Source: Bradyrhizobium sp. AZCC 1610
Lineage (GTDB): Bacteria; Pseudomonadota; Alphaproteobacteria; Rhizobiales; Xanthobacteraceae
Assembly (NCBI RefSeq): GCF_036924515.1
Contig: NZ_JAZHRR010000001.1
Span: 1,707,001-1,771,000 of the forward strand
Length of the DNA: 64,000 bases
Direction of reading: 5' to 3'
Each line of letters begins with the position of its first letter. Positions within the stretch are counted from its first letter, which is position 1. Below the pieces are notes generated by a model. That model saw only the letters and a program-made list of their open reading frames with translations. It had not been told where the DNA came from and did not search any database. Of the stretch, positions 50,402 through 63,600 are shown piece by piece. The position numbers and the translations under genes are program-made.

Positions 50402-50653
50402 TGGGATGGTCTCTTTTGTAGCGGACACATCCAGTATGGCCGATCTCGACTACGCCAGCCACAGCAGCATTGCTCCGAGTACACCTGCCTCGTGCAATCA
50501 GGGCAGGCGTGGCATGGCGCATTCCTCCCCTGACTTTTGTGCGCTTTTTGTTTGGTTGCAGTGCTGGTACGAAACCTTACATGGATTGCGCCGGCCGCCG
50601 CGCGACAGATCACGCAATCGCGAGACGGCTCGAAGGAGCCTGGAGCCCAGCCA

Positions 50654-51547
50654 ATGACCGACGCCCCCGTCATCGACCCGTCAGCCTACGTCCCGCCAAA
50701 AGTCTGGACCTGGAACAAAGAGAGCGGCGGCCAGTTCGCCAGTATCAACCGCCCGATCGCAGGCGCCACGCATGAGGCCGAACTACCGGTCGGCCGCCAT
50801 CCGTTTCAGCTCTATTCGCTGGCTACTCCCAACGGCGTCAAGGTCACGGTCATGTTCGAGGAGCTGTTGGCGGCCGGCCACAGCGGCGCGGAATACGACG
50901 CGTGGCTGATCAAGATCGACGGCAATCAGTTCGGCAGCGGTTTTGTCGCCGTTAATCCGAACTCGAAAATTCCGGCGCTGATGGATCGCAGCGGGCCTCA
51001 GCCGATCCGCGTGTTCGAGTCCGGCGCGATCCTGATGCATCTCGCCGAAAAGTTCGGAGCGTTCCTGCCGACCGCTGGTGCGGCGCGGGCCGAATGCCTG
51101 TCATGGCTGTTCTGGCAGATGGGCAGCGCGCCGTTTCTCGGCGGCGGTTTCGGCCATTTCTACGCCTACGCGCCGACCAAGATCGAATACGCCATCGACC
51201 GCTACGCCATGGAGGTGAAGCGCCAGCTCGATGTGCTCGATCGCCGTCTTGCCGACAACGAATTTCTCGCCGGCCACGAATACACGATCGCCGACATGGC
51301 CACCTGGCCGTGGTACGGCGCGCTGGCCAAGGGCCTCGTCTATGGCGCCGGCGAATTCCTGTCGGTGCACGAATACAAGAACGTGCAGCGCTGGACCGAT
51401 GCGATTGCAAAACGCCCTGCGGTGAAGCGCGGCCGCATGGTCAACCGGATCTCGGGCGATCCGGCGAGCCAGTTGCACGAGCGGAATGAGACCTCAGATT
51501 TCGACACGAAGACGCAGGACAAGATCGGAGAGCCCGCGAAGACGTAA
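50654..51547 (+). CDS. yghU: YghU-type glutathione-dependent disulfide-bond oxidoreductase
   Basis: A 297-residue Nu-class glutathione transferase. Typical segments: YVPPKVWTWNKESGGQFASI at the N-terminus, SLATPNGVKVTVMFEELL (thioredoxin-like half), VAVNPNSKIPALMD and FESGAILMHLAEKFGAFLPT, which bind glutathione, and the helical domain with AGHEYTIADMATWPWYG. E. coli YghU and YfcG reduce disulfides using two glutathiones. The ATG at 50654 has AAGGAG upstream. It is 23 bp from the next hydrolase gene, so the two form an operon. Confidence 0.93.
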   Translation: MTDAPVIDPSAYVPPKVWTWNKESGGQFASINRPIAGATHEAELPVGRHPFQLYSLATPNGVKVTVMFEELLAAGHSGAEYDAWLIKIDGNQFGSGFVAVNPNSKIPALMDRSGPQPIRVFESGAILMHLAEKFGAFLPTAGAARAECLSWLFWQMGSAPFLGGGFGHFYAYAPTKIEYAIDRYAMEVKRQLDVLDRRLADNEFLAGHEYTIADMATWPWYGALAKGLVYGAGEFLSVHEYKNVQRWTDAIAKRPAVKRGRMVNRISGDPASQLHERNETSDFDTKTQDKIGEPAKT

Positions 51548-52410: not shown

Positions 52411-53031
52411 TTAAACCGCCGTCTTCGCGCCCTCGGCCGGCGGAAACACTACGCGATCATCGGTCCGACAGTAACGATCCGCGAACATGCGGCCGATCGG
52501 GTGATAGCGCTCCATATGCACGCGCATCGCGGCGTGGTCCCACAATTCGTCGCGGATGTGGAAATGGATGCCTTCGCCCATCACCAGCAGCCGGTCGCCG
52601 TTGACGTCGATTTCCTTCCAGGTCTTGCATTCCATCGCAAACGGCGCATCCGCCAGCCGCGGCACGGCGATTTTCGTCGAGGGTGCCAGTTTGAGATTCA
52701 AATAATCCGGCTCGCCGATCTCGGGCGGGAAGTCGCCGCTGCTCTCGTGCATCGCATGCGCCAGCGCCTCGTCGGTCATGTTGACCACGAATTCGTTCGT
52801 CGCGCGGATGTTGATCACCGTGTCCTTGACGCGGCCGTCCGGGCGCAAATTGGCGGCGAACATGCAGAGCGGTGGATCCTCGCAGAACACGTTGAAGAAA
52901 CTGAACGGCGCCGCGTTGACCACGCCGGCAGGTCCCATCGACGTCACCCACGCGATCGGCCGCGGCAGCACGAACGACGTCAGCACCTTGTAGCGCTCGC
53001 GGGGTTTTAAGTCGCTGGGGGCGTATTGCAT
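52411..53031 (-). CDS. Flavin reductase family protein
   Basis: A 206-residue FMN-binding split-barrel protein. Conserved parts are FVLPRPIAWVTSMGPAGVVN, APFSFFNVFCEDPPLCMFAA and NEFVVNMTDEALAHAMHESS. Such proteins reduce flavin with NAD(P)H for partner monooxygenases or act as FMN oxidoreductases. The ATG at 53031 is preferred; the frame runs open upstream through a family D repeat, which is not coding. The stop abuts a family C repeat. Confidence 0.9.
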   Translation of the reverse strand: MQYAPSDLKPRERYKVLTSFVLPRPIAWVTSMGPAGVVNAAPFSFFNVFCEDPPLCMFAANLRPDGRVKDTVINIRATNEFVVNMTDEALAHAMHESSGDFPPEIGEPDYLNLKLAPSTKIAVPRLADAPFAMECKTWKEIDVNGDRLLVMGEGIHFHIRDELWDHAAMRVHMERYHPIGRMFADRYCRTDDRVVFPPAEGAKTAV

Positions 53032-53045
53032 GCAAGGGGGCTCCG

Positions 53046-53136
53046 CGTAGGGTGGGCAAAGCGCAGCGTGCCCACCATTCAGCGCGGGCGCAAGTAGCGG
53101 TGGGCACGGCGCTTGCGCGCCTTTGCCCACCCTACG
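53046..53136. repeat. Intergenic palindromic repeat, family D
   Basis: CGTAGGGTGGGCAAAGCGCA, GCGTGCCCACC on the left; GGTGGGCACGGCGC and CGCCTTTGCCCACCCTACG on the right. It lies between the acyl-CoA dehydrogenase and flavin reductase genes, both minus strand, starting 15 bp before the reductase ATG. Confidence 0.9.
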
Positions 53137-53146
53137 ATAGCTCAAG

Positions 53147-54421
53147 CTACGGCATGCTCAGTTCATGCCGGCCGACCACCATCCAGTGCACCTCATCCGG
53201 ACCGTCGGCGAAGCGCAGGTGACGGACATCCTGGTACATCTCGCCGAGCGGGCTCCACTGCGAAATGCCGGTGGCGCCGTGCATCTGGATCGCCTGGTCG
53301 ATGATCTTGCAGGTGCGCTCCGGCACCATGGCTTTCACCATGCTGACCCAGATCCGCGCTTCCTTGTTGCCGAGGACGTCCATCGCCTTGGCCGCTTTCA
53401 GCACCATCAGCCGCATCGCCTCGATCTCGCAGCGCGCCTGGGCAATGATCTGCAGATTCCCGCCGAGATGGGCGATCTTCTTGCCGAAGGCTTCGCGGGT
53501 CAGACCGCGCGACACCATCAGGTCGAGCGCCTTTTCGGCCTTGCCGATCGTGCGCATGCAGTGATGGATGCGGCCCGGCCCGAGCCGAACCTGCGAGATT
53601 TCAAAGCCGCGGCCTTCGCCGAGCAGCATGTTCTCCTTTGGCACCCGGCAATTGTTGAAGCGCAGGTGCATGTGGCCGCGCGGCGCGTGGTCGTGGCCGA
53701 ACACGTGCATCGGGCCCAAAATCTCGACGCCGGGGGTGTCTGTTGGTACCAGGATCTGCGACTGCTGCTTGCTCGGCGGCGCGTCGGGATTGGTCTTCAC
53801 CATCACGATCATGATCTTGCAGCGCGGATCGCCGGCGCCCGAAATGTAATACTTCTCGCCGTTGATCACCCATTCGTCGCCGACGAGTTTTGCCGTCGTC
53901 GAAATGTTCTTGGCGTCGGACGAGGCGACGTTGGGTTCGGTCATGGCGTAGGCGGAACGGATTTCGCCATTGAGCAGCGGCTTCAGCCACTTCTCCTTCT
54001 GCTCCTTGGTGCCGACGCGCTCCAGCACCTCCATGTTGCCGGTATCGGGTGCCGAGCAATTCATAGTTTCCGAGGCCAGCGGATTTTTCGCGAGTTCGAC
54101 CGCGATATAGGCGTAGTCGAGATTCTTCAGGCCCTGGCCGGTCTCGTCATCGGGCAGGAAGAAATTCCACAGGCCTTCCTCCTTGGCCTTGTCCTTGGCC
54201 TTCTGCAGCACCGCGAGTTGTTCGGGCGTAAAGCTCCAGCGATCCTTCTTGCCTTCGCCAAGCCGCATGAACTCGACCGACATCGGGTCGACAGTTTCGC
54301 GGATGAACTTCTTGACATGCTCGTAGAGCGGACGGACCTCGTCCGACATCCGCAAATCGTTGAGTTCTTCGCCCGGATTGAGATTGTAGGTCGTCGTTCG
54401 CGGGATGTAGGCGTGTTTCAT
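53147..54421 (-). CDS. Acyl-CoA dehydrogenase family protein (ACAD10/11-like)
   Basis: A 424-residue FAD-dependent acyl-CoA dehydrogenase. FAD- and substrate-binding segments: SAYAMTEPNVASSDAKNIST (about residues 155-174), VINGEKYYISGAGDPRCKIM and MHGATGISQWSPLGEMYQDV. The loop that holds the catalytic Glu as YEGT in medium-chain dehydrogenases reads RFADGPDEVH, with Asp, as in the ACAD10/11 branch, so the reaction may not be a plain dehydrogenation. Its promoter (54487-54516) is shared in sequence with that of the VOC gene. Confidence 0.9.
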   Translation of the reverse strand: MKHAYIPRTTTYNLNPGEELNDLRMSDEVRPLYEHVKKFIRETVDPMSVEFMRLGEGKKDRWSFTPEQLAVLQKAKDKAKEEGLWNFFLPDDETGQGLKNLDYAYIAVELAKNPLASETMNCSAPDTGNMEVLERVGTKEQKEKWLKPLLNGEIRSAYAMTEPNVASSDAKNISTTAKLVGDEWVINGEKYYISGAGDPRCKIMIVMVKTNPDAPPSKQQSQILVPTDTPGVEILGPMHVFGHDHAPRGHMHLRFNNCRVPKENMLLGEGRGFEISQVRLGPGRIHHCMRTIGKAEKALDLMVSRGLTREAFGKKIAHLGGNLQIIAQARCEIEAMRLMVLKAAKAMDVLGNKEARIWVSMVKAMVPERTCKIIDQAIQMHGATGISQWSPLGEMYQDVRHLRFADGPDEVHWMVVGRHELSMP

Positions 54422-56109: not shown

Positions 56110-56490
56110 TTACGTCGGCATCCGATGCATCGCGCAGATCTTGTTGCCGTCGAGATCGCGCAAATAAGCCAGATAGAGTTTGCCCGCGCTGCCTTCGCGC
56201 ACGCCCGGCGGATTCTCGCAGGTGGTGCCGCCATTGGCGATGCCGGCCGCGTGCCAGGCGTCGGCCTGCTCGGGCGATTCAGCCGCAAAGCCGATGGTGC
56301 CGCCGTTCGCCGGCGTCGCCGCCTGGCCGTTGATCGGCTTGGTCACCGAGAACACGCCGGTCTTGGTGAAGTAGAAAATGCGGTGACCGTCGACCTTTGC
56401 CGGCCGGACGCCGAGCGTGCCGAGCAGCGCGTCGTAGAACGCTTTGGCCTTTTCGAGGTCGTTGGTGCCGATCATCACGTGCGAAAACAT
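56110..56490 (-). CDS. VOC family protein (glyoxalase/bleomycin resistance fold)
   Basis: A 126-residue vicinal-oxygen-chelate protein: MFSHVMIGTNDLEKAKAFYD at the start (metal-ligand His about residue 4), HRIFYFTKTGVFSVTKPING in the middle, FAAESPEQADAWHAAGIANG, and KLYLAYLRDLDGNKICAMHR with the C-terminal ligand region. Members include glyoxalases, ring-cleavage dioxygenases and antibiotic-binding proteins; this short single-module form is of unknown function. Confidence 0.9.
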   Translation of the reverse strand: MFSHVMIGTNDLEKAKAFYDALLGTLGVRPAKVDGHRIFYFTKTGVFSVTKPINGQAATPANGGTIGFAAESPEQADAWHAAGIANGGTTCENPPGVREGSAGKLYLAYLRDLDGNKICAMHRMPT

Positions 56491-57987: not shown

Positions 57988-58767
57988 TCAAAACGCCGTA
58001 TACCCGCCATCGATCACAAAACAATCCGCCGTATGATACGACGACGCCTTGCTCATGATGTAGACGGCGACGCCGCCGAAATCCGTCGGCTCGCCAAAGC
58101 GGCGCACCGGGATGCGCGGCATCACGTTGGCGACGAACTTGTCGTTGGCCATGAGGCCGGAGGTCATGTCGCTCTTGATCCAGCCGGGCAGGATCGCATT
58201 CGCCGTGACGCCGTGGCGCGCCAGTTCAACCGCAAGCGCGCGGCACAGCGCGTTCAGCGCCGCTTTAGTGCCGGCATAGTGCTCGTTGCGGGCGGTGCCG
58301 AACAGCGATGCAAGGCTGGAGGTTGCGACCAGCCGGCCGAATTTGTCGCCGGCCTCAGCGCGTTCGGTCATGTGGCGGGCTGCAGCCTGAAACACATGGA
58401 AGACGCCGTCGAGATTGGTCGCGAACATGCGCCGCCATTCCTCCTCGGTGCGGTCGATGAAGGCGCGGCGTCCGCCGCCGCCGATGCCGGCATTGGCAAA
58501 GCAGCCGTCGACGCGGCCGAACGTGTCGAGGGTTGCCTTCATCGCCGTCTTGACGGAAGCAGAATCGGAGACATCGCAGATCTGCGTGTCGACCTTGCCG
58601 GGCCCGGCCGACATGGTTGCCGCCGCGCTCTTGTTCTTGTCGGCATTACGGCCCCAGATCGAGACGTTGCAGCCTTGCGCGTTCAACGCCTGCGCGATGC
58701 CAAGGCCGATGCCGCCATTGCCGCCGGTGATGACGGCCGTGCGGCCGGAGAGATCAAAAATGCTCAT
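57988..58767 (-). CDS. SDR family oxidoreductase (LvaD-like by context)
   Basis: A 259-residue classical SDR: TAVITGGNGGIGLGIAQALN (cofactor), FANAGIGGGG, ATSSLASLFGT (catalytic Ser), HYAGTKAALNALCRAL (Y-x-x-x-K) and LPGWIKSDMTSGLMAN. The active site is intact. It is divergent from an operon of enoyl-CoA hydratase, APH-like kinase and DUF6285 genes; in the Pseudomonas putida lva pathway an SDR (LvaD) reduces levulinyl-CoA to 4-hydroxyvaleryl-CoA. The link here is by context; the actual substrate is unknown. Confidence 0.88.
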   Translation of the reverse strand: MSIFDLSGRTAVITGGNGGIGLGIAQALNAQGCNVSIWGRNADKNKSAAATMSAGPGKVDTQICDVSDSASVKTAMKATLDTFGRVDGCFANAGIGGGGRRAFIDRTEEEWRRMFATNLDGVFHVFQAAARHMTERAEAGDKFGRLVATSSLASLFGTARNEHYAGTKAALNALCRALAVELARHGVTANAILPGWIKSDMTSGLMANDKFVANVMPRIPVRRFGEPTDFGGVAVYIMSKASSYHTADCFVIDGGYTAF

Positions 58768-58936
58768 GGGATGTTTCCATTTTGCTTTGGGGCGCGATAA
58801 GTCGTGCGCCCAGTGGCGGGCAGATGTTCTGCTGCAAGCATGGACAAGCGCGCCCGGAAAATCAAATATGGGTCGAGAACTCCTTCAGATCTTCCGCGCA
58901 GCGAAATAGCGCGTAAACGCAACTCATGAGGAAACA

Positions 58937-59728
58937 ATGCAGTTCAAGCACGTCACGCTCGATTTCGATGGCCCGGTCGCCATTCTCAAGCTCGACCATC
59001 AGGAGGTCATGAACGCGGTCTCGATGGACATGCTGGGTGGTCTCGGCGAGGCGCTCGATGCGATCGACGACAAGCGGGAGGAGGTGCGCTGCCTGGTGCT
59101 GACCGGCGCCGGACGCGCGTTCTGCACCGGCGCCAATCTGCAGGGCCGCAACAACCAGAAAGCCGGCAAGAGCAACGCCGGGCAATCGCTGGAAATCGGT
59201 TTTCATCCGTTCCTGCGGCGGCTGCGCAGGCTACATTGCCCGATCGTGTCAGCGGTCAATGGCCCCGCCGCCGGCGCCGGGATGAGTTTTGCATTGATGG
59301 GCGACATGATCGTGTGCGCGCGGTCGTCCTATTTCCTGCAGGCGTTCCGCCGCATCGGCCTGGTGCCGGATTGCGGCTCGACCTGGCTGCTGCCGCGCAT
59401 GATCGGCAAGGCGCGCTCGGTCGAGCTGTCCTTGATGGGCGAGCGGCTGCCGGCAGAGAAGGCGCTGGAGTGGGGCCTCGTCAACCGCGTCTATAACGAT
59501 GCTGTCTTGATGGAAGAGGCGATGAAGCTCGCGCATGACCTCGCCAACGGGCCGACGATCGCGCTGTCCTTGATCCGAAAACTCTATTGGGACAGCCCGG
59601 AAAATTCCTTCGAGGAGCAGCTCAACCTCGAATTCGAATCGCAACGCATCGCGGGCGCGGCGGAGGATTTCAAGGAAGGCGTCACCGCGTTCCTGGAAAA
59701 GCGCCCCGCCAAGTTCAGGGGCAAATGA
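58937..59728 (+). CDS. Enoyl-CoA hydratase/isomerase family protein
   Basis: A 263-residue crotonase. Oxyanion-hole segments are LTGAGRAFCTGANLQGRNNQ and NGPAAGAGMSFALMGDMIVC; the following FRRIGLVPDCGSTWLLPRMI replaces the first catalytic Glu region with P-D-C, so isomerase chemistry rather than simple hydration is possible. WGLVNRVYND is standard. Its TGA overlaps the ATG of the kinase-like gene (ATGA), so they are co-expressed. Confidence 0.92.
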   Translation: MQFKHVTLDFDGPVAILKLDHQEVMNAVSMDMLGGLGEALDAIDDKREEVRCLVLTGAGRAFCTGANLQGRNNQKAGKSNAGQSLEIGFHPFLRRLRRLHCPIVSAVNGPAAGAGMSFALMGDMIVCARSSYFLQAFRRIGLVPDCGSTWLLPRMIGKARSVELSLMGERLPAEKALEWGLVNRVYNDAVLMEEAMKLAHDLANGPTIALSLIRKLYWDSPENSFEEQLNLEFESQRIAGAAEDFKEGVTAFLEKRPAKFRGK

Positions 59729-60711
59729 TCGAGGACCAACTCGGACGTTGCGTCGCCTCCTGGTATCCGGGAGCGACCGGCGTCACCGGCGCCGCCAAAC
59801 TTTCCGGCGGCGCCAGCCAGGAGACCTGGACGTTCGATATCGTGCAAGCGAGCGGCAAGGTCGGCGCCATCCTGCGCCGAGCGCCGCCGGGCTATGGCGC
59901 GTCCCCGGGACGGGCGGCCGGCCTCGATGCCGAGGCAACCCTGATGCAGCTCGCGCACGACGCCGGCCTGCCGTCGCCGCGGGTGATGCATGTGCTTAAG
60001 CCGGAGGACGAACTCGGCACCGGCTTCATCATGCAACGCATCGAGGGCGAGACCATCGCGCGCAAAATTCTGCGCGACGAGCAGTTCGCCAAGGCGCGTC
60101 CGATTTTGGCGCGGCAGCTTGGCCGCGTGATCGCCGGCATTCACGGCTTGCCGGCTGCGAAATTGCCTAAGCTGCGTGAGATGAGCGCGACAAAGGAAAT
60201 CGCCGACCTCGAGCGGGAGTATCGCAGTTTCAATTGGCCGCGACCGGTGTTCGAACTGGCGCTGCGCTGGTTGCGCGAGCGCGATCCCGGGCCATCGAAG
60301 GACGTCACACTGGTGCATGGCGATTTTCGCCACGGCAACCTCATCATCGGCCCCGACGGTGTGCGCGCGGTGCTGGACTGGGAGCTCGCACATTTCGGCG
60401 ACCCGATGGAGGATCTCGGTTGGATCTGCGTCAACTCCTGGCGCTTCGGCGAGATCGACAAGCCGGTCGGCGGGTTTGGTTCGCGCGAAGAATTGTTCGC
60501 AGGCTATGAGGAAGCCGGCCGCAAGGTCGATCCGGACCGCGTGATGTTCTGGGAAGTGATGGGCACGCTGCGCTGGGGCATCATGTGCTGCGGCATGATG
60601 CAGCGCTTCCGTTCCGGCCCCGATCATTCAATGGAGCGCGCCATGATCGGCCGTCGCTCGTCGGAGACGGAAATCGATTTGCTACGGCTGCTAGCCCCGC
60701 GGGGAAAATAA
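59725..60711 (+). CDS. Phosphotransferase (APH-fold kinase), LvaA-like
   Basis: A 328-residue aminoglycoside-phosphotransferase-fold kinase. The catalytic loop is LVHGDFRHGNLIIG (about residues 194-207), the metal-binding segment is VLDWELAHFGDPMEDLGWIC, and GGASQETWTFDI forms the N-lobe. This subfamily sits next to acyl-CoA dehydrogenases in bacteria and is fused to one in animal ACAD10/11. In P. putida LvaA phosphorylates 4-hydroxyvaleryl-CoA. The start overlaps the hydratase stop by 4 bp; the DUF6285 gene follows after 1 bp. Confidence 0.9.
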   Translation: MIEDQLGRCVASWYPGATGVTGAAKLSGGASQETWTFDIVQASGKVGAILRRAPPGYGASPGRAAGLDAEATLMQLAHDAGLPSPRVMHVLKPEDELGTGFIMQRIEGETIARKILRDEQFAKARPILARQLGRVIAGIHGLPAAKLPKLREMSATKEIADLEREYRSFNWPRPVFELALRWLRERDPGPSKDVTLVHGDFRHGNLIIGPDGVRAVLDWELAHFGDPMEDLGWICVNSWRFGEIDKPVGGFGSREELFAGYEEAGRKVDPDRVMFWEVMGTLRWGIMCCGMMQRFRSGPDHSMERAMIGRRSSETEIDLLRLLAPRGK

Positions 60712-60712
60712 C

Positions 60713-61087
60713 ATGCAGGACGAACCGACACCCACCGAACTGATCAAGGCGGTCGCGGACTTCCTCCGCAACGAAATTACACCCGCCATCAAGGGTCACA
60801 ACGCCTTCAAGCTCCGCGTCGGCATCAACGCGCTCGATCTCGTTACACGGCAGTTGGCGCTGGAGCAGGGGAGTGACGCAGCCGAGGTCACGCGGCTGAA
60901 GCAGTTGCTTGGCTCGGATGGCTCGCTGCTCGAACTAAATCATGCGCTGTCGGACAAGATTGCCAAAGGCGAGGTCGATCTGCAGACGCCTGGGCTGTCG
61001 GAACATCTCTGGCAGACCACGATGGACAAGCTCGCCGTCGATCAGCCGAACTACGCCTCGTACAAGCGCGAACTCGGAAAATCGTAG
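60713..61087 (+). CDS. DUF6285 protein, LvaB-like partner of the kinase
   Basis: A 124-residue, mainly helical, acidic protein: TELIKAVADFLRNEITPAIK at the start, FKLRVGINALDLVTRQLALE in the middle, WQTTMDKLAVDQPNYASYKR at the end. It matches the small proteins that accompany APH-like kinases of acyl-CoA metabolism; in P. putida LvaB binds LvaA and is required for 4-phosphohydroxyacyl-CoA formation. It starts 1 bp after the kinase stop. Its own TAG stop lies inside the following family C repeat. Confidence 0.88.
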   Translation: MQDEPTPTELIKAVADFLRNEITPAIKGHNAFKLRVGINALDLVTRQLALEQGSDAAEVTRLKQLLGSDGSLLELNHALSDKIAKGEVDLQTPGLSEHLWQTTMDKLAVDQPNYASYKRELGKS

Positions 61088-61163
61088 GATGGGTAGAGCG
61101 GAGCGAAACCCATCATGTGTCGAGGCCGGAACGATGGGTTTCGCTGCGCTCTACCCATCCTAC
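61083..61163. repeat. Intergenic palindromic repeat, family C, supplying a stop codon
   Basis: CGTAGGATGGGTAGAGCGGA and GCGAAACCCATCAT on the left; ATGGGTTTCGCTGCGCTC and TACCCATCCTAC on the right. The first TAG (61085-61087) is the stop of the DUF6285 gene. Confidence 0.9.
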
Positions 61164-61185
61164 AAGGTTAGCGTCAACTCTCCGC

Positions 61186-61305
61186 CGTCATTGCGAGGAG
61201 CAAAGCGACGAAGCAATCCATCTATCCCCGTGTTGAGGCGTGGATTGCTTCGCGGAGCCTGTCATCCGGCGGCGCTTTGCGCCGACCGGGTGGCTCGCAA
61301 TGACG
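61186..61305. repeat. Intergenic palindromic repeat, family B, expanded copy
   Basis: CGTCATTGCGAGGAGCAAAG and GCAATCCA on the left; TGGATTGCTTCGCG and GGCTCGCAATGACG on the right, with an extra GC-rich insertion (about 61256-61292) in the right arm, similar to that in the copy at 17687. Confidence 0.88.
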
Positions 61306-61325
61306 GGGATAGAGCGTCGCGTTCA

Positions 61326-62105
61326 TCACCGCCCCAGCCATTTTGGCGGACGCTTCTCCGCAAACGCCTTCGGTCCCTCGATGTAATCCTGCGAAGCCGC
61401 CATCGCCTTTACGGCCGGGTACTCCCGCTGCTCGGCGATCGCCTGTTCCAGCGACACCTCAAGCCCCCGCTGAATTGCCTGCTTGGAGGCGCGGATCGAC
61501 ATTGGCGAGTTCTTGCAGATCGTCTCCGCCCAGCGCTCCGCTGCCGCGAGCGCTTCACCGGCCGGAACCACCTCATTCACAAAGCCGAGCTCGAGGCCCT
61601 CCTTGGCCGAGACGTGGCGTGCGGTCAGGATCATGCCCATGGCGCGCTTCAGGCCGATCTGGCGCGGCAGGCGGTGCACGCCGCCGGCAAGCGCGGCGAG
61701 GCCGACGCGCGGCTCGGGCAGCGCAAACGTCGCATTCTCCGACGCAATGATGAGGTCGCAGGCCAGCGCGATCTCAAAACCGCCGCCCATCGCGACGCCA
61801 TTGACGGCGGCGATGATCGGCTTGTCGCAGTCGAACCGCGAGGTGAGGCCGGCGAAGCCGCCCTTGTCCCAGCCGCGCTTTCCTCCGGCGGCCTGCCATT
61901 TCAGGTCGTTGCCGGCGCAGAACGCCTTGTCGCCGGCGCCGGTGACGATCGCGACCCATTGCGCAGGGTCCGCGGAGAAGTCGTCGAACACCTTGTTGAG
62001 TTCGAAATGCGCGTCGATATGCAACGCATTGTACACTTCGGGCCGCGACAGCGTGATGATCGTGATCGGTCCCTTGCGCGTCACCTTGGAGAATTTCAGG
62101 TCCAT
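61326..62105 (-). CDS. Enoyl-CoA hydratase family protein (crotonase)
   Basis: A 259-residue crotonase. Oxyanion-hole segments: VTGAGDKAFCAGNDLKWQAA and NGVAMGGGFEIALACDLIIA; catalytic Glu in ALPEPRVGLAALAGGVHRLP, as in carnitinyl-CoA dehydratase and 3-hydroxyacyl-CoA-forming hydratases. The ATG at 62105 has GGGAG upstream; the frame is open to a far start but homology begins here. It is divergent from the acyl-CoA dehydrogenase gene and fits the final hydration step of a 4-hydroxyacyl-CoA route. Confidence 0.92.
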   Translation of the reverse strand: MDLKFSKVTRKGPITIITLSRPEVYNALHIDAHFELNKVFDDFSADPAQWVAIVTGAGDKAFCAGNDLKWQAAGGKRGWDKGGFAGLTSRFDCDKPIIAAVNGVAMGGGFEIALACDLIIASENATFALPEPRVGLAALAGGVHRLPRQIGLKRAMGMILTARHVSAKEGLELGFVNEVVPAGEALAAAERWAETICKNSPMSIRASKQAIQRGLEVSLEQAIAEQREYPAVKAMAASQDYIEGPKAFAEKRPPKWLGR

Positions 62106-62325
62106 GTTTGCTCCCGTACTGATTTTCTGCGGAGAAGAATATTGGCCGCGATCATAGCGCCAGCGCGGCGTCCGATACCATTCAATTACGCAAGGCCCCT
62201 GCGCGTGCCAAGGTCCATTCCGTTGCTTGACTTGGGCATGGTCTTCCAACCTTAATTCATCCGAGCAGGAGTGCGGCGTAGCGCCTAAACGCAAAAGCAA
62301 TAAACGACATTTCCGGGAGATTGCC

Positions 62326-63600
62326 TTGGATTTCAACCTGCCTGCCGATCTCACAGCCTATCTCGACGAGCTCGACCGCTTCATCGCGCGCGAGATCAAG
62401 CCGCTGGAGGAGGCCGACGACAACATCCGTTTCTTCGACCATCGCCGCGAATGGGCGCGCACCGATTTCGAGAACGGCGGCCTGCCGCGGCATGAATGGG
62501 AAGCGCTGCTGCGCAAGGCCAAGAACCTCGCGGATGCCGCCGGGCATCTGCGCTTCGCGATCCCCAAGCGCTACGGCGGCAAGGACGGCTCCAATCTCTG
62601 GATGGCCGTCATCCGCGAACATTTCGCGTCGAAGGGCCTTGGCCTGCACAACGATCTGCAGAACGAGCATTCGATTGTCGGCAATCTGCCCATCGTCACC
62701 ATGCTCGACCGCTACGGCACCGACGATCAGAAGGCGATGATCGACGGCTCGATTACGGGAAAATACCGCATCACGTTCGGGCTCACCGAGCCGGAGCACG
62801 GTTCCGACGCGACGCATATGGAAACCAGGGCCGTGCAGGCGACCCGCGACAACGTCAAGGGCTGGATCATCAACGGCCAGAAGATGTGGACGACCGGCAT
62901 GCATGTCGCCACGCACTGCGCGCTGTTCGCCCGCACGTCGGGCAACGACGGCGACGCGCGCGGCATCACCTGCTTCCTGGTGCCGGCTAGAAGCGAAGGC
63001 GTGAAGGTCGAGGAGTACATGTGGACCTTCAACATGCCGACGGACCATCCGCGCGTCAGCTTCACGGATGTGTTCGTGCCCGAGGATGCGCTATTCGGCG
63101 AGGTTGGCCGTGGCCTCTCGCTGGCGCAATGCTTCGTGCACGAGAACCGTATCCGCCAGGCGGCGAGCTCGCTGGGCGCTGCGGTCTATTGCATCAACGA
63201 GAGCGTCAAATACGCGCGCGAGCGCAAGCCGTTCGGCAAGGCGCTGGCCGAGAACCAGGCGATCCAGTGGCCGCTGGTGGAGTTGGCGACACAGGCCGAG
63301 ATGCTGCGGCTGTTGATCCGAAAAACCGCGTGGGAGATGGATCAACTCACCCAGGCGCAGGTCGAGCACACGCTGTCCGACCGGGTGTCGATGTGTAATT
63401 TTTGGGCCAACCGCCTGTGCTGCGAAGCCGCCGACCGCGCCATGCAGGTGCACGGTGGCATGGGCTATTCGCGCCACAAGCCGTTCGAGCACATCTACCG
63501 CCACCACCGCCGCTACCGCATCACCGAGGGCAGCGAGGAAATCCAGAAGCGGAAGGTGGCGGGATTTTTGTTCGGGTACATGGGGGCGGGGAAGCATTGA
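62326..63600 (+). CDS. Acyl-CoA dehydrogenase family protein, LvaC-like
   Basis: A 424-residue ACAD. Segments: RITFGLTEPEHGSDATHMET (FAD and acyl-CoA binding), WIINGQKMWTTGMHVATHCA, and the C-terminal HGGMGYSRHKPFEHIYRHHR followed by YRITEGSEEIQKRKVAGFLF. The basic YRHHRRYRI stretch and the neighbouring kinase and DUF6285 genes mark the LvaC/ACAD10-like group that removes phosphate from 4-phosphoacyl-CoA to give an enoyl-CoA. The best start is TTG 62326 with GGGAG 7-8 bp before it; an ATG far upstream at 62227 lacks a ribosome site. Confidence 0.9.
   Translation: MDFNLPADLTAYLDELDRFIAREIKPLEEADDNIRFFDHRREWARTDFENGGLPRHEWEALLRKAKNLADAAGHLRFAIPKRYGGKDGSNLWMAVIREHFASKGLGLHNDLQNEHSIVGNLPIVTMLDRYGTDDQKAMIDGSITGKYRITFGLTEPEHGSDATHMETRAVQATRDNVKGWIINGQKMWTTGMHVATHCALFARTSGNDGDARGITCFLVPARSEGVKVEEYMWTFNMPTDHPRVSFTDVFVPEDALFGEVGRGLSLAQCFVHENRIRQAASSLGAAVYCINESVKYARERKPFGKALAENQAIQWPLVELATQAEMLRLLIRKTAWEMDQLTQAQVEHTLSDRVSMCNFWANRLCCEAADRAMQVHGGMGYSRHKPFEHIYRHHRRYRITEGSEEIQKRKVAGFLFGYMGAGKH

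What the first reader, a model, noticed from the sequence alone, without database searches (positions are those of the whole stretch)
57988..63600. An lva-like set for 4-hydroxyacyl-CoA catabolism
Seen: an SDR, an enoyl-CoA hydratase, an APH-fold kinase, a DUF6285 protein, a second hydratase and an acyl-CoA dehydrogenase in 5.6 kb, with 4-bp and 1-bp junctions in the central trio. Established: in Pseudomonas putida LvaA (APH-fold kinase) with LvaB phosphorylates 4-hydroxyvaleryl-CoA, LvaC (acyl-CoA dehydrogenase family) removes the phosphate, and LvaD (SDR) makes the hydroxy compound; animal ACAD10/11 fuse the kinase and dehydrogenase parts. Inference: this cluster isomerises 4-hydroxy- or 4-ketoacyl-CoAs to 3-hydroxyacyl-CoAs. 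The layout differs from lva (split over divergent units, two hydratases, no acyl-CoA synthetase), so the substrate may differ too.
Basis: partly seen in the sequence, partly recalled or inferred. Interest (0 to 1): 0.72.

Follow-up and report, generated by a model that had tools for sequence, protein, structure and literature searches.

The report
LvaA/LvaB-type kinase pair with misidentified dehydrogenase
A soil bacterium appears to carry a relative of the two-part enzyme that puts a phosphate on hydroxylated fatty-acid CoA esters so that they can be burned, but its likely partner is a different gene from the one first suspected, and an uncharacterised sister enzyme travels with the pair.

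Summary
The six genes are real and the junctions are as described. The kinase (59725-60711) and DUF6285 protein (60713-61087) are an LvaA/LvaB-type pair by family: DUF6285 fills the lvaB slot of lva-type operons in Pseudomonas citronellolis and putida-group species, and DUF6285-partnered kinases form one clade holding Pseudomonas LvaA and the window kinase. Fused kinase-DUF6285 proteins exist. The finding's dehydrogenase (62326-63600, 'ACADf') is not LvaC: it has F/Q/S/E where LvaC/ACAD10/11 have R/H/R/D (9 of 9 orthologues aligned). It is not generic either: it is the sister clade of LvaC/ACAD11, and 40 of the 41 genomes found to carry it also have DUF6285. The LvaC/ACAD11-type gene lies outside the coordinates, at 53147-54421 (minus), near this SDR in 9 of 9 other same-genus genomes. 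'No acyl-CoA synthetase' is a window-edge effect. The genome also has a separate ACAD11-type kinase/dehydrogenase pair at 4.02 Mb without DUF6285. Best reading: a hydroxyacyl-CoA kinase plus an ACAD11-type phosphate-eliminating enzyme feeding beta-oxidation. Substrate and hydroxyl position are inferred, not shown. Boldest reading: ACADf replaces LvaC.

The parts
59725..60711 (+). APH-fold kinase, LvaA family (328 aa; DUF6285-partnered clade)
   Evidence: PF01636 5e-35; catalytic Asp and Asn kept; in the 99* clade with Pseudomonas LvaA-type kinases; 32-34% identity to them, 26% to the own ACAD11-type kinase
60713..61087 (+). DUF6285 protein, LvaB family (124 aa, predicted all-helical)
   Evidence: PF19802 109 bits against cut-off 28.1; the same family fills the lvaB slot in P. 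citronellolis and putida-group species; AF2 model of 5 helices, pLDDT 84.6, no PDB match with E under 3
53147..54421 (-). LvaC/ACAD10/11-type phospho-acyl-CoA eliminase candidate ('ACADx', 424 aa), outside the finding's coordinates
   Evidence: best PDB hit mouse ACAD11, E 2.8e-115; RLGPGRIHHCMR and ADGPDEVH; R626/H634/R637/D753 all present; inside the ACAD11 branch, 100/100*
62326..63600 (+). Acyl-CoA dehydrogenase 'ACADf' (likely TTG start, Glu base, no HCMR motif); sister clade of LvaC/ACAD11
   Evidence: 40 of the 41 genomes found to carry it also have DUF6285
58937..59728 (+). Enoyl-CoA hydratase/isomerase ECH1, first gene of the ECH1-kinase-DUF6285 unit
   Evidence: NCBIfam NF004635 486.8 bits against cut-off 351; match of at least 55% identity in 23 of 40 ACADf+ DUF6285+ genomes, 0 of 26 DUF6285+ ACADf- and 0 of 14 DUF6285-
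61326..62105 (-). Enoyl-CoA hydratase/isomerase ECH2 (likely ATG 62105)
   Evidence: ECH_1 211.9 bits; syntenic in 9 of 9 other same-genus genomes fetched
57988..58767 (-). Short-chain dehydrogenase/reductase; LvaD role possible but unproved
   Evidence: adh_short_C2 2.3e-58; 31% identity to an LvaD-type SDR, 30% to the SDR of the 4.02 Mb locus; SDR-glyoxalase-ACADx in a row on one strand in 6 of 9 relatives
56110..56490 (-). Glyoxalase-superfamily protein, between SDR and ACADx
   Evidence: PF00903 2e-7; between SDR and ACADx in same-genus genomes
52411..53145 (-). Flavin reductase-like protein downstream of ACADx on the same strand (longest frame; true start probably further in)
   Evidence: PF01613 5.3e-24; match beside ACADx in 7 of 9 other same-genus stretches

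Best explanation
The ECH1-kinase-DUF6285 unit encodes an LvaA/LvaB-type two-subunit kinase that phosphorylates a hydroxyl (most likely C4) of an acyl-CoA. DUF6285 is the LvaB subunit, perhaps needed because this kinase clade lacks the CoA-contact arginines of ACAD10/11 kinases. The phosphate is then eliminated by an LvaC/ACAD11-type flavoenzyme, here the linked gene at 53147-54421, giving a 2-enoyl-CoA that ECH1/ECH2 hydrate. ACADf is a dedicated acyl-CoA dehydrogenase of the same pathway. Shown computationally: family identities, active-site residues, linkage and co-occurrence. Inferred: substrate, C4 position, the role of DUF6285, the pairing of this kinase with the 53147 enzyme, and the role of ACADf.
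For: DUF6285 equals LvaB by position: lvaR<|lvaA>DUF6285>...lvaC>lvaD> in P. citronellolis, plus lvaE in putida-group species; identities of L191 to P. citronellolis LMG 18378 of 51/57/77/65% (LvaR/A/C/D) match the published P. citronellolis LA18T-to-KT2440 values of 52/59/78/67% (PMC6692424 passages). Kinase tree: 84 DUF6285-partnered kinases plus 3 others form one clade, 99*, apart from 39 without DUF6285. Fusions: 10 of 68 frames, and both Pfam domains in 120 of the 120 listed (of 7,575) relatives of a fused query. CoA-contact Arg beside the alphaC Glu: 35 of 42 kinases without DUF6285, 2 of 84 with; R176: 35 of 42 and 3 of 84. 53147: all four eliminase residues; linked in 9 of 9 other same-genus genomes fetched; its subclade (E 1e-170 or better) is in 18 of 289 genomes, 17 of them DUF6285+. 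Kinases of the window's subclade sit beside ACAD11-type genes in L097 (twice), L111 and L130.
Against: No biochemistry. The 53147 gene is on the other strand, 5.3 kb from the kinase, with M20 and M48 peptidase genes between here. Outside the genus its orthologues are 16, 30 and 81 kb from DUF6285 in G417, G459 and G004 and much farther or on other contigs in the rest of the handles compared. No relative of either kinase was found within 1.5 kb of 20 of 20 such orthologues. G554, of another genus of the family, keeps the kinase set without this gene. Six streamlined genomes keep kinase-DUF6285 and ACADf without a 53147-type gene; each has one ACAD11-type gene of the other branch. Pairwise similarity of the window DUF6285 to Pseudomonas LvaB is weak (26%, E 0.005, for one of the LvaB compared); only the profile joins them. 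The KT2440 proteins themselves were not fetched (one search found none). The published 62/56% identity of ACAD10/11 to LvaC (PMC11342911) does not fit the 34% found for the Pseudomonas LvaC-type proteins here.
Confidence: 0.5

Rival explanations
1. ACADf is the true partner: it takes the phosphorylated acyl-CoA (or a product of it) in place of LvaC, making a second, HCMR-free kind of kinase-coupled flavoenzyme; the 53147 gene serves another kinase.
For: ACADf is in 41 of 289 alphaproteobacterial genomes, 40 of them DUF6285+ (Fisher p 3e-30), although usually unlinked; it sits directly after DUF6285, in the lvaC slot, in Sulfitobacter, G459 and G636. It is sister to LvaC/ACAD11 (99/95*). In six streamlined genomes there is a single ACAD11-type gene, and for four of them (G054, G249, G174, G270) the tree shows a separate kinase of the ACAD11-type clade.
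Against: It lacks all three phosphate-binding residues and has the ordinary Glu base (9 of 9), and nonconservative substitution of those residues was most disruptive in ACAD10/11 (PMC12440821). Co-occurrence only says same pathway, and shared ancestry and genome size were not corrected.
Confidence: 0.2
2. The kinase phosphorylates another alcohol, for example a tertiary hydroxyl on a branched or steroid-like compound, as 25-hydroxy steroid kinase does, so the pathway is not one for 4-hydroxyacyl-CoA.
For: Among the best solved folds of the fused kinase model are 25-hydroxy steroid kinase entries 9ft5 and 9fsg. The window kinase lies in a different subclade from Pseudomonas LvaA (50 and 37 rows).
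Against: Hydratases, a dehydrogenase and an LvaC-type enzyme around the kinase fit acyl-CoA chemistry; the best fold match is 3dxp, whose depositors' name is 'putative acyl-CoA dehydrogenase'. The passages of PMC8449060 seen do not mention a small partner protein, but I did not search it for one.
Confidence: 0.2
3. One reading: SDR, kinase, DUF6285 and the 62326 dehydrogenase are LvaD, A, B and C.
For: Kinase and DUF6285 are LvaA/LvaB family.
Against: The dehydrogenase lacks every LvaC-defining residue checked and lies outside the LvaC/ACAD11 clade; the SDR is not specifically LvaD-like.
Confidence: 0.05
4. An ordinary beta-oxidation cluster with an unrelated small-molecule kinase beside it.
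For: Hydratases, SDRs and acyl-CoA dehydrogenases are common; 27 ACAD hits in this genome.
Against: Conserved order in 9 of 9 other same-genus genomes fetched, kinase-DUF6285 fusions, and 40 of 41 co-occurrence.
Confidence: 0.05

Closest known systems
[quoted passage not shown] compared through close relatives)
   Same: APH kinase of the DUF6285-partnered clade next to a DUF6285 (LvaB-family) protein; an LvaC-type enzyme and a synthetase nearby
   Different: Split over divergent units; no relative of the L191 LvaR-type regulator in the window or the 13.8 kb beyond it; hydratases in the unit; LvaC-type enzyme of the ACAD11 branch (GRIHHCMR) rather than the Pseudomonas branch (ARLTHCMRW); additional ACADf
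Animal ACAD10/ACAD11
   Same: The 53147 protein is 49% identical to the ACAD domain of mouse ACAD11 with all four key residues
   Different: Here kinase and dehydrogenase are separate genes; the window kinase is of the other clade, lacks the CoA-contact arginines and has a DUF6285 partner
The genome's own ACAD11-type pair at 4.02 Mb (L038)
   Same: APH kinase plus HCMR dehydrogenase, with SDR and histidine phosphatase nearby
   Different: No DUF6285; kinase only 26% identical to the window kinase
25-hydroxy steroid kinase of Sterolibacterium denitrificans (PMC8449060, passages)
   Same: APH-fold kinase preparing an alcohol for phosphate elimination
   Different: Steroid tertiary alcohol substrate; partner lyase unknown according to the paper

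Membership tests
LvaA (DUF6285-partnered hydroxyacyl-CoA kinase) | APH fold with catalytic Asp and Asn | tested here: met
   PF01636; D220 and N225 equivalents present in the window kinase and in 84 of 84 DUF6285-partnered rows
LvaA (DUF6285-partnered hydroxyacyl-CoA kinase) | Falls in the clade of Pseudomonas LvaA | tested here: met
   One 99* clade with L191 and P. citronellolis LvaA, but a different subclade within it (quick tree without bootstrap)
LvaA (DUF6285-partnered hydroxyacyl-CoA kinase) | Phosphorylates a 4-hydroxyacyl-CoA | not testable with these tools
   needs an enzyme assay
LvaB | Small protein of the family that fills the lvaB slot | tested here: met
   PF19802 over its cut-off in the window protein and in the lvaB slot of L191, P. 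guariconensis, P. soli and P. citronellolis
LvaB | Direct match to KT2440 LvaB itself | not tested
   KT2440 sequence not obtained; exact primer scan found 0 stretches
LvaC/ACAD10/ACAD11 (62326-63600) | R626, H634, R637 and catalytic D753 of mouse ACAD11 | tested here: not met
   F, Q, S, E in 9 of 9 orthologues including the window's
LvaC/ACAD10/ACAD11 (62326-63600) | Inside the LvaC/ACAD11 clade | tested here: not met
   Own clade (100/100*), sister to it (99/95*)
LvaC/ACAD10/ACAD11 (53147-54421) | The same four residues and clade | tested here: met
LvaD | SDR specifically related to LvaD | tested here: inconclusive
   31% to an LvaD-type SDR against 30% to another SDR
lva operon layout | lvaABCDE in one unit | tested here: not met
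   Genes split over divergent units
lva operon layout | Divergent PrpR-type sigma-54 activator (LvaR) | tested here: not met
   phmmer with L191 LvaR finds no frame at E 1e-3 in the window or in L042

The most novel reading that the evidence does not exclude
The window represents a second lineage of kinase-coupled acyl-CoA catabolism in which an LvaA/LvaB-type kinase (fused into one protein in other bacteria) is tied to ACADf, an uncharacterised Glu-type, HCMR-free sister clade of LvaC/ACAD11, as its dedicated partner instead of LvaC, using phosphorylation of an acyl-CoA hydroxyl for a reaction not yet described; it is retained even in 1.4-1.7 Mb genomes.
Probability: 0.22. Interest if true: 0.78.

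Novelty: new variant of a known kind. Interest (0 to 1): 0.56.

Why it matters
It gives a testable identity to DUF6285, a family with 7,720 proteins in one search whose Pfam entry says unknown function: the LvaB subunit of hydroxyacyl-CoA kinases. It also suggests why some kinases need it (missing CoA-contact arginines) while ACAD10/11 do not. It points to two kinase lineages in kinase-coupled acyl-CoA catabolism and, in this lineage, to an unstudied dehydrogenase clade next to LvaC. In the held library, a search for DUF6285 found 0 papers, and of 24 papers with the word LvaB the 20 listed include one about the gene, PMC6692424; the passages seen of it do not make the link. The library is incomplete.

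Tried and rejected
ACADf first looked like a generic acyl-CoA dehydrogenase from PDB sequence hits (best CarC). The trees corrected this: it is sister to LvaC/ACAD11.

LvaB was sought in the true KT2440 genome with a published primer lying just before lvaA (PMC10164729 passages); 0 exact matches. The second scan, allowed because the first found nothing, used the LvaC-type protein of L191 and gave 80 named loci, the best of 583.

Frames of 342-506 aa in L254, L261 and L300 looked like kinase-DUF6285 fusions; reading them showed they are not. The 10 fusions counted are.

DUF6285 alone: 24 PDB fold matches, none with E under 3. For the fused model the DUF6285 part is barely covered by the VIA-align rows, so no claim of a new fold is made. 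No model coordinates were available, so the docking of DUF6285 on the kinase was not examined.

The 19 LvaC/ACAD11 rows were picked mainly because they carry the HCMR letters, so their agreement at H634 and R637 is partly by construction; R626 and D753 were not part of that choice. One row in that clade without HCMR, the own L013, keeps R626, H634 and D753 but has His at R637.

Co-occurrence: the control is that in 398 phylum genomes ACAD11-type genes (E 1e-120 or better) are in 129; by hand, 33 of those 129 are DUF6285+ (and 33 of 39 DUF6285+ genomes have one), against 40 of 41 for ACADf in the class sample. Genome size and shared ancestry were not corrected; by hand, ACADf occurs in 24 family codes, 23 with DUF6285 in the same genome. 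Two of the 41 ACADf hits have a stop in frame and one is partial; some DUF6285 calls are weak or split matches. In one search the 14 DUF6285-negative genomes were my choice and the 55% line was set after seeing the list. At the search's own limit (E 1e-60) ECH1 matches are in 37 of 40, 6 of 26 and 1 of 14 (G042, 53%).

PMC11342911 reports 62% and 56% identity of ACAD10 and ACAD11 to LvaC, while the Pseudomonas LvaC-type proteins here are about 34% identical to mouse ACAD11. Not reconciled. The paper's R86 did not match my chain numbering; I used the Arg beside the alphaC Glu, as its text describes.

The kinase tree is a quick tree without bootstrap. Of 224 kinase stretches, 17 at locus edges and near-duplicates were dropped; 126 rows remain. 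The first ACAD tree had 50 rows; the second dropped 13 and added 8 (45).

Papers: PMC12440821 section 7 and passages; PMC11342911 section 13 and passages; PMC6692424, PMC10164729, PMC8449060, PMC9628823, PMC9399607 and PMC8433446 passages only; Rand et al. 2017 not held.
Full report
Setting. The window is G000:C1:1707001-1771000 of a 7.75 Mb single-contig genome. The named hits among the closest DUF6285 relatives are Bradyrhizobium, 90-91% identical, so the source is probably that genus or near it; this was not tested otherwise.

Observation. All six genes and both junctions are confirmed. The second hydratase probably starts at ATG 62105 and the dehydrogenase at TTG 62326. An acyl-CoA synthetase, an SDR, a further hydratase and a second synthetase lie past the window end, after a group II intron reading frame. 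The first synthetase is at that place in 9 of 9 other same-genus genomes fetched, so the missing synthetase is a window-edge effect.

The dehydrogenase. In mouse ACAD11, R626, H634 and R637 are modelled to hold the 4-phosphate and D753 is the base; nonconservative substitutions of the first three were the most disruptive (PMC12440821 section 7). In an alignment, 19 of 19 LvaC/ACAD11-group proteins have all four, including the protein at 53147-54421 (most of the 19 had been chosen by their HCMR letters). Nine of nine ACADf proteins, including the finding's, have F, Q, S and E. The careful tree of 45 acyl-CoA dehydrogenases puts 53147 inside the ACAD11 branch (100/100*) and ACADf as a separate clade that is sister to LvaC/ACAD11 (99/95*). 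The finding's dehydrogenase is therefore not LvaC, but it is not a random member of the family either.

The LvaC-type gene next door. 53147-54421 hits mouse ACAD11 at E 2.8e-115. In 9 of 9 other same-genus genomes its orthologue lies in the same 20 kb stretch. In 6 of them ACADx, glyoxalase and SDR follow each other on one strand, divergent from ECH1-kinase-DUF6285; M20 and/or M48 matches lie between in 2, and one (L179) has longer unlabelled gaps. Its subclade is in 18 of 289 Alphaproteobacteria, 17 of them DUF6285+. Against a fixed pairing: outside the genus the two are 16, 30 and 81 kb apart in three genomes and farther or on different contigs in the rest of those compared, and no kinase of either type was found within 1.5 kb of 20 of 20 orthologues.

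Kinase and DUF6285. In 67 loci, 67 of 68 DUF6285 frames are beside, overlap or are fused to an APH kinase, 10 of them fused. A search with a fused protein found 7,575 relatives; the 120 listed all have both Pfam domains. In L191 the layout is a divergent PrpR-type sigma-54 regulator, then kinase, DUF6285, HCMR dehydrogenase, SDR and synthetase, as described for the lva operon (PMC10164729 passages). A genome-contig scan with that dehydrogenase gave 80 named loci, 25 with DUF6285. P. guariconensis, P. soli and P. peradeniyensis show lvaR< lvaA> DUF6285> lvaC> lvaD> lvaE>. P. citronellolis LMG 18378 shows lvaR, lvaA, DUF6285, histidine phosphatase, lvaC, lvaD. Its identities to L191 (51/57/77/65% for LvaR/A/C/D) match the published P. 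citronellolis LA18T-to-KT2440 values (52/59/78/67%; PMC6692424 passages). So DUF6285 is very probably the LvaB family, although KT2440 LvaB itself was not obtained and pairwise similarity is weak. The kinase tree splits DUF6285-partnered kinases from the rest with a 99* branch; Pseudomonas LvaA and the window kinase are on the same side, in different subclades.

A possible role for DUF6285. ACAD11 modelling places CoA against an Arg next to the alphaC Glu and against R176. Those positions are Arg in 35 of 42 and 35 of 42 kinases without DUF6285, but in 2 of 84 and 3 of 84 with it. The inference is that DUF6285 supplies CoA contacts or completes the site. AF2 gives a five-helix DUF6285 (pLDDT 84.6, pTM 0.59) and a confident fused protein from another bacterium (P0131; pLDDT 92.9, pTM 0.91); DUF6285 alone has no PDB match with E under 3.

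ACADf as partner. ACADf (E 1e-100 or better) is in 41 of 289 Alphaproteobacteria and 40 of those have DUF6285 (Fisher p 3e-30, not corrected for ancestry or genome size), although mostly unlinked. It directly follows DUF6285 in Sulfitobacter, G459 and G636. ECH1 matches of at least 55% identity occur in 23 of 40 genomes with both, 0 of 26 with DUF6285 but no ACADf, and 0 of 14 chosen genomes without DUF6285. Six streamlined genomes (1.4-1.7 Mb) have kinase-DUF6285 and ACADf and one ACAD11-type gene each; for four of them the tree shows a separate ACAD11-type kinase. Thus the window-type kinase pair has ACADf, more than any LvaC-type enzyme, as its phyletic partner. Whether ACADf acts before, after or instead of the phosphate elimination is open.

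Verdict. New variant of a known kind: an LvaA/LvaB-type kinase module with an ACAD11-type eliminase candidate nearby and an unstudied sister dehydrogenase. The chemistry is inferred.

Noticed in passing
L230:6890-7267: P. citronellolis LMG 18378 has a DUF6285/LvaB gene between lvaA and the histidine phosphatase, although no lvaB homologue was reported for the cluster of strain LA18T (PMC6692424); LA18T itself was not examined.
   Followed up: yes
L038:5270-11745 (C1 about 4.02 Mb): An ACAD11-type kinase plus HCMR dehydrogenase pair without DUF6285, with SDR and histidine phosphatase nearby, elsewhere in the same genome.
   Followed up: partly
L013 (C1:661232-662284): An acyl-CoA dehydrogenase inside the LvaC/ACAD11 clade with DGPDEVH but RHGMH in place of HHCMR: a possible variant eliminase.
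   Followed up: no
window 50537-51544: A GST-family gene near ACADx has 73-74% matches beside kinase-DUF6285 in two small genomes (L124, L125) and a 71% match beside ACADx in L155.
   Followed up: no
L042:6195-7598: A group II intron reverse transcriptase/maturase just past the window end.
   Followed up: no
L042:16161-17378: An SMP-30/gluconolactonase-like gene about 10 kb past the window end; a lactonase could make 4-hydroxy acids from lactones, but linkage was not tested.
   Followed up: no
L074-L076: A gene annotated as histidine phosphatase follows DUF6285 in Thermus, Azoarcus and Azospirillum clusters, as in P. citronellolis; its role is unknown.
   Followed up: partly
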